From a virus, in IMG/VR virus record IMGVR_UViG_3300028794_000198, positions 1-64,000 of that record: a DNA stretch of 64,000 nt; one strand, written 5' to 3'. The number at the start of each line of letters is the position of its first letter. The stretch's first letter is position 1. Under the pieces are notes generated by a model that ran no database searches, was not told where the DNA came from, and saw nothing but the letters and a program-made list of their open reading frames with translations. This document shows, one piece after another, positions 1,793 to 7,680 of the stretch. Position numbers and translations under genes: made by a program.

Positions 1793-2836
1793 TCACTCCC
1801 CCTCAAGAGCCCGCATTGCTGCGGTGATCTCGTCCTGCATCTTGTATGACGGCGAGCGGTCGAGTGCCCCGGCGGCCCGGTCGTAGCGGCGAGTGGTGCG
1901 CGGGTCGGCGTGCCCCATGGCGTCCTGCACATCCGCGAGGGGGACGCCCTTGCTCAAGAGTGCCGTCGCGTAGGAGTGGCGTAGCGAGTGGGGCGACAGT
2001 TGGTCGGCATGCGGAAGACCTGCGGCCCCGGCAACGCGGCGGACGAGGCGGAAGGCGGCCGGCTCATCCATCGGTTTTCCGGTGTTGGTGACGAACAGCA
2101 GATCCTCGGGCTCCGGTTGGCCCCGCTCCGCGAGAAGCGCCTCCACCGCCTCGACGGCCATGGGCACGAGGGCGAAGCGCTTCTTGTGGTCGCGTTTCGT
2201 GATGAGGTCGATGACGCGGTGCCCCTGGTCGTGACCGAGGGCTCCGACGGGGGCGTTGAGGATCGAACCGATTCGGGCGGCGGTGACGGCGAGCATGACG
2301 AGCAAGGCGTAGGTGCGGGCCGTCTCGTGCTTTCGGGCGTAGGTGAGGAGGGCTGCCAGTTGCGCCGCCGTCATTCCTCGGGTCGGGGAGTCGTCGGCGG
2401 AGACCGAGGGCCGCTCCATGCCGAAGAACGGGTTGCGCTCGGCCGCCTCGGCGCGCACCAGGTAGGCGTACCAGCTTGATGCGGCGGCGAGTCGGCGGGC
2501 CCGGGTGGACTTCGCGAGCTCGGCCTCGGCGAGGGCGGCGGCGTACTGGTCTGCCTGGAGTGGCCGCGCGAGTGCCGGATTAGCTTCGCTGGCCGCGCAC
2601 CAGGCGAGCCACCAGGACGCGTCCTTGGCGTAGGCGGTTCGGCTGTGGAGGGACTTCCGGCGGGCGAGCCAGGTGGCGGTCGCCTCGACGACGTTGGGTG
2701 CGGCGCCGGCGTTGCGGAGGAGCGAGAGGAGGGCGTCTGGCGAAGAAGCGGGCGGGGCGCCCCGGAGGGAGAGCTGCGGGACGGCGGTCGGCTCCAGGAA
2801 CGCGGGCCGTTCGGGCACTGCGGGAAGGTCGGCCAT
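1793..2836 (-). CDS. int: Tyrosine recombinase / phage integrase, 347 aa
   Basis: Site-specific recombinase for integration and probably excision. The catalytic set is visible: Arg in TAARIGSIL (about residue 205), Lys in the ITKRDHKK beta-hairpin, HSLRH (about residue 290), the following GH, and the nucleophile Tyr in TRRYDR. An N-terminal SAM-like core-binding domain (HSRTAYAKDASWWLAW) precedes it. ATG 2836 is preferred, with two GTG codons directly upstream. No Shine-Dalgarno is seen; a TATCCT box at 2848-2843 would put the transcript start on the ATG, so the mRNA may be leaderless. It is at one end of the phage-like block and faces the plus-strand gene at 3015 divergently. Confidence 0.93.
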   Translation of the reverse strand: MADLPAVPERPAFLEPTAVPQLSLRGAPPASSPDALLSLLRNAGAAPNVVEATATWLARRKSLHSRTAYAKDASWWLAWCAASEANPALARPLQADQYAAALAEAELAKSTRARRLAAASSWYAYLVRAEAAERNPFFGMERPSVSADDSPTRGMTAAQLAALLTYARKHETARTYALLVMLAVTAARIGSILNAPVGALGHDQGHRVIDLITKRDHKKRFALVPMAVEAVEALLAERGQPEPEDLLFVTNTGKPMDEPAAFRLVRRVAGAAGLPHADQLSPHSLRHSYATALLSKGVPLADVQDAMGHADPRTTRRYDRAAGALDRSPSYKMQDEITAAMRALEGE

Positions 2837-2872
2837 CACCACAGGATAACGGTCATTATTCTGTAGTGATGG
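2833..2872. promoter_or_regulatory. Inverted repeat over integrase start
   Basis: CCATCACCACAG (2833-2844) and CTGTAGTGATGG (2861-2872) form a 12-bp inverted repeat with one mismatch and a 16-bp AT-richer spacer. One arm covers the integrase start codon and the TATCCT -10-like box. This is the arrangement expected of an operator that silences int. Which protein binds is unknown. Confidence 0.5.
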
Positions 2873-3604: not shown

Positions 3605-5296
3605 TCAGGCGGCGCGGTTCTCCCACGGCCAAGCCGCGTCGCGGCCAGCCTCCAGGAGCGGGATCATCCTGAAAGCGTGGTCCGTGAGCCCGCCGAAGGT
3701 GTGACGGCCCGCGCTCCCGGACGGCATGGCGCCGGGCTTGTAGCCGGCCATGTTCCACATGTAGACCGGCACGGTCGTCGGTACGAGGTCGTCGATGGCC
3801 GTCTCGCGCATGCCGCCGTAGCGCTCCATGTTGGAGGGGAGCCATCCGGGCCGGGTCTGTTCGTCGGTGACGATGACGATCCGGTTGTGGCGGAGCAGGT
3901 CGAAGTGCTGCTTGATGGCGGACGGGATGTCGGTGCCGTCGTTCCGGCTGTACTTCTCGATGAGCTTGAGGACGCTTCCGCCCTTGGGTACGTCGACGGT
4001 CTTTGAGCTGCCGCCGAACTCGACGAGCGTCGCGTTCTCTGCGCGCATCGCGAGCGCCGACCCGAAGACTGCGGCCTGTTCGGCGAGCGGGATGTCGGAG
4101 GTGTTCGGGGTGGAGAAGCCGTAGCCCGGGAACATCGACGGCGACCGGTCCACCAGGATCAGCGTCCGGCCCGACAGTCTCGGCACGTTGGCCAGCGAGT
4201 GGTTCAGGGCCTGCTCCAGTGCGTGCGCCCACCGCAGTGAGGGAGCGTGCTTGTAGGCGGCCCACCAACGGAACGGGAACATGCGGGACTTCGCCACCTG
4301 CTCTGGGTCGGCGAACCGCGCGCAGATCTGCGCGGCCACCGCGTCAGAGACTCCGGCCTCGTCGAAGTTCCTGAGGTTCCGCGCGAGCGCCATCACGCCC
4401 ATGGATGGGATGACCGCCTCCCAGGCCGCCTTGTCCATCGGCCCCTGAAGCCAGCCGGCCAGCGCCTCCCACGTCATGCCCGCCCGGCTCAGCTCACCGC
4501 TGGCGTCGACGTTCTCCGTGACGAGCTGGCGCCGCTCTTCCAGTGGGAGCGTCATGAGCCGCTGCCGGTTCAGGAGCAGCGGCAGCCTGCCGGGAATCTC
4601 CTCGTCGTTTCCGTGTCGCCGGTCGAGGGCGTGCCGGAAGAGGTGGCCCTGCCACGGCTTGTCGTCTGCGGGTGCGGCGTGGACGAGGTTGAGGACGTCG
4701 CCGAAGCGGTAGCCCTTCGAGTCGGTGTCGTACTTCAGCAGCGAGCGCTCGTTGTACAGGCGCTGTACGGCGTCGGCGATGCCGCGCTTCACCGGCTTGG
4801 GGACCTTGCGGCCGTAGCGGGATGTCCAGTAGCCGAGCAACTCCCCCGGCTCGTCGGGGCGCTGGAGGACGGCGTCGATGACGCGGCGGTTCCAACCGCC
4901 GTTCGTGGACGCGTCAGCCGCGGTCTCGCGATTCCATCCGGCGGGGTCCGTGCCCTTGTCGCCTTCGAGCCGTGCCTTCACGAACTCGGCCGCGCCGACG
5001 ATCGCCGCGGTCCGCATGTTGCCCTCACCGCGCAGCCAGCCGAGCAGGCCAACCGTCCAGGCCGGGTCTTCGACGGCGAGCTGCCGAACGAGCTGCGTGT
5101 ACCGGTCGTCGCGGTCGCCGCCCTTCTCGTAGAACGCGTCCTGGCCAACGAAGTTGGAGACGGCGAGCAGGAAGAGTTCGGAGCGCGCGTCGCGGAGATG
5201 CCCGGTGGCGCCTTCGTGGGTGACGGTCCGCTCCCCGGTGGTGGTCACGGGCGAGTGGACGGCGGAACGAGTCGAGCGCGTGTTGAAGCGAGACAC
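3605..5296 (-). CDS. rsr: Ro60/Rsr-type TROVE-VWA RNA-binding protein, 563 aa
   Basis: Ortholog of the ring-shaped Ro60 autoantigen, which binds Y RNAs and misfolded RNA ends; bacterial Rsr works with 3'-5' exoribonucleases. The N-terminus SRFNTRSTRSAVHSPV, then GHLRDARSELFLLAVSNFVG and the HEAT-like TROVE region (to about residue 350), are characteristic. The C-terminal VWA domain keeps an intact MIDAS: DRSPS (about residue 375), Thr in DGTDIP and Asp in IVTDEQ. GTG 5296 is chosen because family members begin M-S-R/K-F-N-T-R and GAGGGG lies 7 nt upstream. Ro homologs are known in some actinobacteriophages. Here the gene is directly downstream of tRNA-like RNAs. Confidence 0.93.
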   Translation of the reverse strand: MSRFNTRSTRSAVHSPVTTTGERTVTHEGATGHLRDARSELFLLAVSNFVGQDAFYEKGGDRDDRYTQLVRQLAVEDPAWTVGLLGWLRGEGNMRTAAIVGAAEFVKARLEGDKGTDPAGWNRETAADASTNGGWNRRVIDAVLQRPDEPGELLGYWTSRYGRKVPKPVKRGIADAVQRLYNERSLLKYDTDSKGYRFGDVLNLVHAAPADDKPWQGHLFRHALDRRHGNDEEIPGRLPLLLNRQRLMTLPLEERRQLVTENVDASGELSRAGMTWEALAGWLQGPMDKAAWEAVIPSMGVMALARNLRNFDEAGVSDAVAAQICARFADPEQVAKSRMFPFRWWAAYKHAPSLRWAHALEQALNHSLANVPRLSGRTLILVDRSPSMFPGYGFSTPNTSDIPLAEQAAVFGSALAMRAENATLVEFGGSSKTVDVPKGGSVLKLIEKYSRNDGTDIPSAIKQHFDLLRHNRIVIVTDEQTRPGWLPSNMERYGGMRETAIDDLVPTTVPVYMWNMAGYKPGAMPSGSAGRHTFGGLTDHAFRMIPLLEAGRDAAWPWENRAA

Positions 5297-5303
5297 AAGA
5301 AAG

Positions 5304-5320
5304 CCCCTCACATGGAGGGG
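5304..5320 (-). promoter_or_regulatory. Hairpin enclosing the Ro60 Shine-Dalgarno
   Basis: On the minus-strand RNA, CCCCUC (5320-5315) pairs perfectly with GAGGGG (5309-5304) across a 5-nt loop. GAGGGG is the only good Shine-Dalgarno for GTG 5296. The hairpin is followed by CUUUCUU, so it could act as an attenuator as well as an RBS mask. Its 5' arm overlaps by two bases the CCUCC (5323-5319) that could pair with GGAGG at the start of the neighbouring tRNA-like element. Confidence 0.55.
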
Positions 5321-5396
5321 AGGTCCAGCAGTGAGGTGCCCGAGATCAAGGTCGGCTGCGGAGACAAAGCGCTCTAGGCCACTGAGCTACCTCCGG
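5318..5396 (-). ncRNA. tRNA-like element C in Ro60 leader
   Basis: The minus-strand RNA begins CCGGAGG-UA-GCUC-AGUGGCCUA-GAGC: an acceptor-like strand, U8-A9 and a perfect D-arm with GG in the loop. After an irregular middle arm comes CCGA-CCUUGAUC-UCGG, a 4-bp stem with an 8-nt loop that resembles an altered T-arm. ACCUC directly after this stem, or CCUCC at 5323-5319, can pair with GGAGG. No credible anticodon arm is present. It is probably a tRNA mimic rather than a translating tRNA, and might be part of a Y RNA (bacterial YrlA RNAs contain a tRNA-like module). Confidence 0.45.
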
Positions 5397-5401
5397 TCCG
5401 C

Positions 5402-5472
5402 TGGACCGGTGGACGGGATTCGAACCCGCGTCTCTCTCTTAGCAGGAGAAGTATCCGCCGCCTGCGCACCGG
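5402..5472 (-). tRNA. tRNA-like element B, GCU anticodon, short D region
   Basis: The anticodon arm is UUCUC-CUGCUAA-GAGAG (GCU, Ser). The T-arm GCGGG-UUCGAAU-CCCGU is canonical. The 3' strand CCACCGG, U73 and an encoded CCA follow. The 5' strand CCGGUGC gives six acceptor pairs and one C-C mismatch. Only 15 nt separate acceptor and anticodon stems, where a normal D region needs about 19. The variable loop is 4 nt, although bacterial tRNA-Ser is class II. It is therefore either a degenerate tRNA or a tRNA mimic. It immediately precedes element C on the same strand. Confidence 0.5.
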
Positions 5473-5487
5473 GCACCCCCGATGCTG

Positions 5488-5560
5488 TGCCTCCCGAGAT
5501 CAAAGTCGGGACCGGTGTCACTTTCCAAAGAAGTAACCGGGCCCTGCGCACCGGGAGGTG
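5488..5560 (-). ncRNA. tRNA-like element A, UUG loop
   Basis: It shares CCCGGUGCGCAGG and UACUUCU with element B, so the two are probably duplicates. UACUU-CUUUGGA-AAGUG forms a tRNA-like anticodon arm with UUG (Gln). CCCGA-CUUUGAUC-UCGGG replaces the T-arm with an 8-nt loop. An alternative closing stem CCUCCCG (5558-5552) with CGGGAGG (5496-5490) is perfect over 7 bp. The UUUGAUC element recalls, from memory, the 3' strand of Ro-binding sites in Y RNAs, but this is weak evidence. Confidence 0.4.
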
Positions 5561-6778: not shown

Positions 6779-7129
6779 TCAGGCCGCCAGGTTGAGGTCT
6801 TCGCGGGTGACGCGCGCCGTGACCTGAGTGCGGGACCACAGGCCGATGACGACGGTCACCAGCGACAGCCACAGCGCCTGGTGGTCGGCGTCCAGCTTCA
6901 GCCCGAAGCCGACTGCGGCAGCGACGAGGGCCTGCGCAAGGTTGAACACGGCCGCACCCATGGCGTCATGCGCCATGACGGCGATGGCCAGGGCGACGGC
7001 GCAGGCGGCGACCGTGTTGACGGTGGCCTGCTGTGTCTGGGTGGCGTGGAAGACGTAGGCCGAGCCGAGCTTCACCAGGATGCTGACGAAGGCCAGGACC
7101 GCAGCCGGTTCGCGTCCGAAGATCTTCAT
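6779..7129 (-). CDS. Putative holin-like membrane protein, 116 aa
   Basis: Four hydrophobic stretches (AVLAFVSILVKLGSAYVF, TVNTVAACAVALAIAVMA, AVFNLAQALVAAAVGFGL, ALWLSLVTVVIGLW) and charged ends fit a phage holin. ATG 7129 overlaps the exoribonuclease stop by 4 nt. Its place just downstream of the amidase supports lysis, but the assignment is by size, topology and context only. Confidence 0.6.
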   Translation of the reverse strand: MKIFGREPAAVLAFVSILVKLGSAYVFHATQTQQATVNTVAACAVALAIAVMAHDAMGAAVFNLAQALVAAAVGFGLKLDADHQALWLSLVTVVIGLWSRTQVTARVTREDLNLAA

Positions 7130-7680
7130 GGGGTTCTCGTTTCCTGTTCGGCGAGCCAGCGCCGGACGGTCTGGTTGTGTCTCGCGTCGGCTAGGGCGTT
7201 GTGCTCGGCGCCCTCCTGCTTCGGGAGTGCGTCCCAGGCGATGCCGAGGCGGCGGGCTTCCTGCTGGATGTCGTTGGTGAACATCGGCACCCCGGCCGGG
7301 AGCGCGATCATCGGGCCCCACAACTGGGCGAGCGCGACGTGGTCGTAGGCCCCGTAGTTCGCCCACAGTTCGACGTCCGGTCCGGCCGCGCGGATGAACT
7401 CGGCGACCTCGGAGGCGATCGTCTTCCGGTGCTTCACCCGGTGGTCGGCGTAGTGGAACAGCCAGCGTTTCGGCATGTGGATCCGCTGGTCACCGTGCCC
7501 CTTCGGGAGGCTGGGGACGACGTTCTGCATCAGCCACGGGTGCTTCCGAATGCGGCGGACGGGCATGTCGCGATTGACGGCGTCGTACTCGCGGCCGTCG
7601 TCGCACACCATGCCGATGGAGATCAGCTCGATGGTGCGGCCGTCCTCCAGGAATTCGAGATCGTAGAAGACGTCGGTCAC
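7126..7680 (-). CDS. Rv2179c-like 3'-5' exoribonuclease (DEDDh), 184 aa
   Basis: The start MTDVFYDLEFLEDGRTIELISIGMV carries the D-x-E of a DEDD exonuclease, a middle Asp lies in NYGAYDHVAL, and the final H/D pair in HNALADARHN. This matches the family of the mycobacterial RNase Rv2179c. GTG 7680 overlaps the amidase stop (GTGA). RNA or DNA may be the substrate. It is in the lysis cassette but close to the Ro60/RNA unit; Rsr proteins are known to work with exoribonucleases, so a link is possible but unproven. Confidence 0.8.
   Translation of the reverse strand: MTDVFYDLEFLEDGRTIELISIGMVCDDGREYDAVNRDMPVRRIRKHPWLMQNVVPSLPKGHGDQRIHMPKRWLFHYADHRVKHRKTIASEVAEFIRAAGPDVELWANYGAYDHVALAQLWGPMIALPAGVPMFTNDIQQEARRLGIAWDALPKQEGAEHNALADARHNQTVRRWLAEQETRTP

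What the first reader, a model, noticed from the sequence alone, without database searches (positions are those of the whole stretch)
3605..5560. Ro60 gene preceded by a cluster of three tRNA-like RNAs
A complete TROVE-VWA (Ro60/Rsr) gene lies directly downstream, on the same strand, of three tandem tRNA-like elements (A 5560-5488, B 5472-5402, C 5396-5318). B has a canonical T-loop, a GCU anticodon arm and encoded CCA but only 15 nt where the D region should be, and a short variable loop wrong for tRNA-Ser. A and C each have an 8-nt CUUUGAUC/CCUUGAUC loop in place of the T-arm. Bacterial Y RNAs (YrlA) contain a tRNA-like module and are encoded next to rsr. The set may be a phage-borne Y RNA or a new class of Ro60 client made of tRNA mimics.
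Basis: partly seen in the sequence, partly recalled or inferred. Interest (0 to 1): 0.8.

Follow-up and report, generated by a model that had tools for sequence, protein, structure and literature searches.

The report
Phage Ro60 with two Y RNAs
A Streptomyces-type virus carries a ring-shaped Ro60-like protein gene together with two small Y RNAs, one containing a rearranged tRNA-like part; this is a phage copy of a known bacterial RNA-handling module, and software mistakes such RNAs for tRNA genes.

Summary
The Ro60 gene is real (5296-3605, minus), but the three 'tRNA-like elements' are two RNAs. B and C are the halves of one 143-nt YrlA-type Y RNA (Y2, 5477-5335): a closing stem, then T-arm, acceptor-like hairpin and D-arm in permuted order. 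In 26 aligned copies 33 pairs are 97.5% kept, 18 of them with changes on both sides (0/500 shuffles). A is a 69-nt Y RNA without the tRNA module (Y1, 5558-5490) sharing Y2's end motifs. The CUUUGAUC/CCUUGAUC 'loops' belong to the base of the closing stem, the probable Ro60 site. The ARAGORN tRNA-Ser is false: its called identity changes between relatives, and six annotated GenBank phage 'tRNAs' upstream of Ro60 lie on the same RNA. In 199 Streptomyces genomes RNA and Ro60 co-occur (88 both, 96 neither, 15 discordant). The protein belongs to a second Ro60 lineage, about 20% identical to classical Rsr, yet its RNA's tRNA-like module is up to 85% identical to that beside classical phage Ro60 genes, while the RNA ends differ by lineage. 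Likely mechanism (inferred): Ro60 on the stem, tRNA-like module tethering a nuclease such as host PNPase. Phage Y RNAs are already known.

The parts
5490..5558 (-).
   Evidence: present in nearly all close relatives; alignment A2 and model R2; same end motifs as Y2 (R2 also hits Y2 at 56.5 bits)
5335..5477 (-).
   Evidence: 33 pairs, 97.5% kept, 18 with double changes; model R1 144.6 bits (the window is in the model); Rfam YrlA is a full-length but sub-threshold match
5465..5476 (-). Y2 closing stem P1, 5' strand, with UGCG of the UGCGCAG element
   Evidence: pairs with 5348-5336; 5 of 10 pairs with double changes (coordinates)
5336..5348 (-). Y2 closing stem P1, 3' strand, with UUGAUC element
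5448..5453 (-). UACUUC element, shared by Y1 and Y2; it or a one-base variant is in 32 of 33 RNAs of this Ro60 lineage examined and absent from 8 of 8 RNAs of the classical lineage
5413..5429 (-). T-arm of the tRNA-like module (GCGGG UUCGAAU CCCGU)
   Evidence: 100% paired in 26 sequences
5390..5412 (-). acceptor-like hairpin joining T-arm and D-arm
   Evidence: 6 of 7 pairs with double changes
5371..5387 (-). D-arm (GCUC AGUGGCCUA GAGC)
   Evidence: 100% paired, 2 pairs with double changes
5304..5320 (-). hairpin CCCCUC-CAUGU-GAGGGG followed by CUUUCUU: terminator-like, and its 3' strand is the likely Shine-Dalgarno sequence of Ro60
   Evidence: terminator scan; same hairpin in most relatives just before the start codon
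3605..5296 (-). Ro60-like TROVE-VWA protein, 563 aa, start GTG
   Evidence: Pfam, PHROG, AF2 and Foldseek; start by comparison
1793..2842 (-). tyrosine integrase downstream of Ro60 (context: temperate phage)
   Evidence: Pfam Phage_integrase, E 1.7e-27

Best explanation
The locus is a phage-borne Ro60/Y RNA cassette: Y1, then Y2, then Ro60. Shown: Y2 is one YrlA-type RNA whose ends pair and enclose a permuted tRNA-like module; Y1 is a short Y RNA without the module; both share end motifs; the RNAs and this Ro60 lineage occur together across phages and Streptomyces genomes. Inferred: the Ro60 ring binds the base of each stem; Y1 occupies or gates the ring; the tRNA-like module of Y2 tethers a partner, most simply the host PNPase (as RYPER in Deinococcus), biasing decay or repair of structured RNA during lysogeny or infection. 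The confidence given is for the identity of the cassette; for the PNPase-tether mechanism it is about 0.5.
For: Covariation over 26 sequences; alternative pairings do worse. R1 finds the RNA upstream of Ro60 in phages not used to build it: VanLee 112.9 bits, Gurke 81.5, Kradal 76.3, BearBQ 75.2, prophiGD43A-5 71.1, Nappy 65.8; in Atuin (76.4 bits) the hit lies just downstream of Ro60. Rfam YrlA is the best Rfam match at the same places in L036 and L010 (47.0 and 44.5 bits, E 1.2e-7 and 6.3e-7). In 199 Streptomyces genomes 88 have both, 96 neither, 4 RNA only, 11 Ro60 only; 29 of the top 40 RNA matches lie within 1 kb upstream of Ro60 on its strand. Ro60 fold: Foldseek top hits 9kop, Thermus phage phiLo Ro60 (9l5y), 1yvp and D. 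radiodurans Rsr 2nvo. Mechanism precedent: PMC7790460, PMC8394870, PMC4726728.
Against: No expression, binding or PNPase data. The Rfam YrlA gathering score is not reached (25.2 against 69). The protein is about 20% identical to classical Rsr-type phage proteins and lacks the Pfam vWA_Ro60 match, so transferring RYPER to it is a step. An autoregulatory leader or a decoy role is not excluded.
Confidence: 0.9

Rival explanations
1. Ordinary or degenerate tandem tRNAs: B is a tRNA-Ser and C the start of the next tRNA, which would also give T-arm followed by D-arm.
For: ARAGORN calls tRNA-Ser. R1 does give weak matches on real tandem tRNA-Asn genes, about 42-46 bits in Streptomyces.
Against: Y2 scores 108-147 bits in the window and its close relatives, above the tandem-tRNA ceiling. 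The hairpin between T-arm and D-arm covaries, which two separate tRNAs would not do. The called identity changes between relatives (Ser, Asn, Gly, Met, Val, Lys or none). Rfam tRNA passes the true tRNAs of the same loci but not these.
Confidence: 0.02
2. The RNAs act as a cis-acting leader: Ro60 binding to Y1/Y2 in its own transcript, together with the hairpin that covers the Shine-Dalgarno sequence, sets Ro60 level.
For: Same strand, under 50 nt between Y2 and the start codon; a conserved terminator-like hairpin overlapping the Shine-Dalgarno sequence in most relatives.
Against: YrlA-type RNAs unlinked to Ro60 exist in Streptomyces-group chromosomes, and in phage Atuin the array follows the gene, so the RNAs can presumably act in trans. 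Not exclusive of the main explanation.
Confidence: 0.2
3. The tRNA-like module is a decoy for tRNA-acting host defence nucleases or modification enzymes, with Ro60 as stabiliser.
For: Conserved T-loop and D-loop identities; a competitor role was suggested for Salmonella YrlA (PMC7790460); phage Kela has an RNA ligase gene next to its Ro60.
Against: No conserved anticodon arm; some members of the lineage lack the full module (L027, L058, L060).
Confidence: 0.15

Closest known systems
YrlA (bacterial Y RNA with tRNA-like domain; Salmonella, Mycobacterium smegmatis; Rfam RF02553)
   Same: Encoded beside Ro60/Rsr; ends pair into a stem; T-arm, acceptor-like hairpin and D-arm in permuted order
   Different: Below the Rfam gathering score; partner protein is a divergent Ro60 lineage; own end motifs (UGCGCAG, UACUUC, UUGAUC)
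Y RNAs reported or proposed in phages (mycobacteriophages, Chen 2014 as cited in PMC12282133; Listeria phage CKA15, PMC12282133)
   Same: Phage genome with Rsr and nearby Y RNA; here Mycobacterium phage Nappy gives an R1 match upstream of its Ro gene
   Different: Nappy's Ro60 is of the classical type (vWA_Ro60) with other RNA ends
Salmonella rsr-yrlBA operon
   Same: More than one Y RNA per Ro60 gene
   Different: RNAs precede Ro60 here; no rtcBA seen next to the cassette
Ro60 of Thermus phage phiLo (PDB 9l5y) and 9kop
   Same: Best structural and sequence matches to the window's protein
   Different: 22-24% identity; no RNA was examined for them here

Membership tests
YrlA-type bacterial Y RNA | encoded next to a Ro60 gene | tested here: met
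   window and relatives
YrlA-type bacterial Y RNA | 5' and 3' ends pair in a stem | tested here: met
   P1, 5 of 10 pairs with double changes
YrlA-type bacterial Y RNA | tRNA-like domain: T-arm, acceptor-like stem, D-arm, permuted | tested here: met
   (Y2 only; Y1 lacks it)
YrlA-type bacterial Y RNA | published Ro60-binding sequence at the stem | tested here: inconclusive
   conserved UGCGCAG/UUGAUC found, but the defining paper was not held
YrlA-type bacterial Y RNA | binds Ro60 and PNPase; modified by tRNA enzymes | not testable with these tools
   needs biochemistry
Rfam RF02553 as curated | gathering score 69 bits | tested here: not met
   25.2 bits; relatives up to 47; so filed with the wider YrlA type, not with this Rfam family
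tRNA | Rfam tRNA gathering score and stable decoding identity | tested here: not met
Ro60 (TROVE-VWA) | TROVE plus VWA fold | tested here: met
   Pfam TROVE above cut-off; Foldseek 9l5y, 1yvp, 2nvo
Ro60 (TROVE-VWA) | MIDAS-like D-x-S-x-S | tested here: met
   D382, S384, S386 invariant in 23 proteins
Classical Rsr/Ro60 subfamily | Pfam vWA_Ro60 PF25045 and sequence match to Rsr 2nvo | tested here: not met
   no match; BearBQ, Cashline, Nappy and FuzzBuster do match PF25045

The most novel reading that the evidence does not exclude
Y RNAs are modular: one tRNA-like effector is carried on two different Ro60-binding handles, each matched to one of two Ro60 lineages only about 20% identical, and some Streptomyces carry further YrlA copies unlinked to Ro60 that serve it in trans. 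The partner of the module, rather than Ro60, would then be the common and most constrained target.
Probability: 0.4. Interest if true: 0.6.

Novelty: new member of a known kind. Interest (0 to 1): 0.42.

Why it matters
It resolves a puzzling cluster into a known type of RNA and explains why gene finders report tRNAs of changing identity in front of phage Ro60 genes. It also shows that a divergent Ro60 lineage, common in Streptomyces (99 of 199 genomes with a match), travels with YrlA-type RNAs. That gives a set of natural RNA/protein pairs in which binding handle and effector can be separated, so the partner of the tRNA-like module becomes testable outside Deinococcus and Salmonella.

Tried and rejected
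Tandem tRNA reading. Rfam at gathering score: nothing in the window, and sub-threshold YrlA alone is weak because control genomes ring too. A link to the nearby Rv2179c-like exoribonuclease gene (7126-7650): its homologues occur in 216 phage records, most of them phages not seen in the Ro60 list, so no specific link. A sigma-70 promoter scan upstream gave nothing. The key paper (Chen 2014) and a review are not in the library, so its exact phage list and binding consensus could not be checked.

Full report
What was checked. The window lies in a 90,048-base virus record. On its minus strand there is an intact TROVE-VWA gene; relatives place its start at GTG 5296. Pfam gives TROVE above its cut-off, PHROGs 'RNA-binding protein' phrog_850, and an AlphaFold2 model (mean pLDDT 76, pTM 0.74) matches solved Ro60 structures, best 9kop and Thermus phage phiLo Ro60, then 1yvp and D. 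radiodurans Rsr 2nvo. A tyrosine integrase lies downstream and tail, endolysin and holin genes upstream, so this is most likely a temperate tailed phage. Relatives in named genomes are in Streptomyces, Kitasatospora and Actinacidiphila.

The RNAs. The alignment of 26 copies folds into one structure: closing stem, second stem, T-arm, acceptor-like hairpin, D-arm. Of 33 pairs, 18 show changes on both sides; 97.5% of cells pair; none of 500 shuffles reaches this, and slid controls fall to 35-48%. Relatedness inflates such counts, but the acceptor-like hairpin alone has six doubly changed pairs of seven.

A is a different object: 69 nt, closing stem CCUCCCG/CGGGAGG, no T- or D-arm, but the same UGCGCAG, UACUUC and UUGAUC elements as Y2. 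The shared elements explain why A and B look alike at their 5' ends and A and C at their 3' ends: they are the two ends of Y RNAs. Covariation inside A alone is thin (2 of 14 pairs with double changes), so its identity rests on the shared motifs and position.

Independent tests. The model R1, built from the window and IMG/VR copies only, finds the RNA upstream of Ro60 in phages that were not in it: Gordonia VanLee 112.9 bits, Brevundimonas Gurke 81.5, Streptomyces Kradal 76.3, Gordonia BearBQ 75.2, Mycobacterium prophiGD43A-5 71.1 and Nappy 65.8; in Arthrobacter Atuin the array follows the gene. Weaker hits (about 43-60 bits) in this set rest partly on position and motifs, because real tandem tRNAs in Streptomyces reach about 46 bits. 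A DNA search with the RNA region alone led to five phage loci taken up because of the RNA match, and all five have an annotated Ro-like or RNA-binding gene just downstream. In 199 Streptomyces genomes the RNA (E up to 1e-8) occurs in 92 and this Ro60 in 99, with 88 shared (Fisher p 2e-38, not corrected for kinship).

Not tRNAs. ARAGORN's identity at the same place changes from locus to locus (Ser, Asn, Gly, Met, Val, Lys, or none). Annotated tRNAs directly upstream of Ro60 in GiJojo, Alone3, Frankenweenie, VanLee, Gurke and prophiGD43A-5 overlap R1 hits; the first five fail the Rfam tRNA gathering score while most neighbouring tRNAs pass.

Two Ro60 lineages. BearBQ, Cashline, Nappy and FuzzBuster carry classical Ro60 (Pfam vWA_Ro60; BearBQ matches Rsr 2nvo at E 5e-122). 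The window's protein is 19-20% identical to BearBQ, prophiGD43A-5 and Nappy and lacks that match; a quick tree separates the two groups with full support, though with long branches. Nevertheless the tRNA-like module of Y2 is 85.4% identical over 82 nt to BearBQ's and 75-79% to the others, while the ends differ: the UACUUC element is in 32 of 33 RNAs of this lineage and 0 of 8 of the other. Gordonia phages occur in both groups, so the ends follow the protein rather than the host genus; on the tree this is a single change, hence one event and not a statistical proof.

Mechanism. In D. radiodurans a Y RNA tethers Rsr to PNPase and gates substrate entry (PMC4726728, PMC7790460, PMC8394870). By analogy Ro60 should hold the stem of Y1 or Y2, and the module of Y2 should recruit a partner; this is inference. 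Whether the phage uses it to steer RNA decay, to protect or repair RNA, or to counter a host nuclease is open. A conserved hairpin that looks like a terminator and covers the likely Shine-Dalgarno sequence of Ro60 (5320-5304) suggests, as a guess, that the RNAs are made in excess of the protein.

Novelty. Y RNAs with tRNA-like domains next to Ro60, including in mycobacteriophages, are known (cited in PMC12282133). This locus is a new member. Possibly new are the pairing of YrlA-type RNA with the divergent Ro60 lineage, the lineage-specific ends, the unlinked copies and the tRNA misannotation; the primary paper could not be read to confirm this.

Noticed in passing
L030, L031, L035, L036, L041, L045: GenBank tRNA genes directly upstream of phage Ro60 (Arg, Ser, Pro, Arg, Ser, Thr) overlap YrlA-type RNAs and are probably misannotated.
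   Followed up: yes
L092:2838-2976 (-), L093:2454-2595, L094:2603-2734: High-scoring YrlA-type RNAs (103-118 bits) in Streptomyces-group chromosomes with no Ro60 found within about 2.5 kb; 11 of the top 40 matches in 199 genomes are unlinked, and one genome (G203) has two such RNAs and no detected Ro60.
   Followed up: partly
window 5320-5304: Conserved CCCCUC/GAGGGG hairpin with a U-run just before the Ro60 start codon; its 3' strand is the likely Shine-Dalgarno sequence.
   Followed up: partly
L055, L056 (just upstream of Ro60): Instead of full Y RNAs there is only a short hairpin GUCCAGG..CCUGGAC; in L056 it keeps the UGCGCAG and UACUUC elements: a reduced Y RNA or relic.
   Followed up: no
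L017:2876-2977; L058, L062 upstream of Ro60: Shortened Y RNAs with a lone T-arm-like hairpin and no D-arm.
   Followed up: no
L034:1238-1990: Streptomyces phage Kela encodes an RNA ligase between its YrlA RNA and Ro60, hinting at RNA repair.
   Followed up: partly
window 7126-7650 (-): Rv2179c-like 3'-5' exoribonuclease gene near the lysis genes, kept in several relatives but widespread in phages, so no specific link to Ro60.
   Followed up: yes
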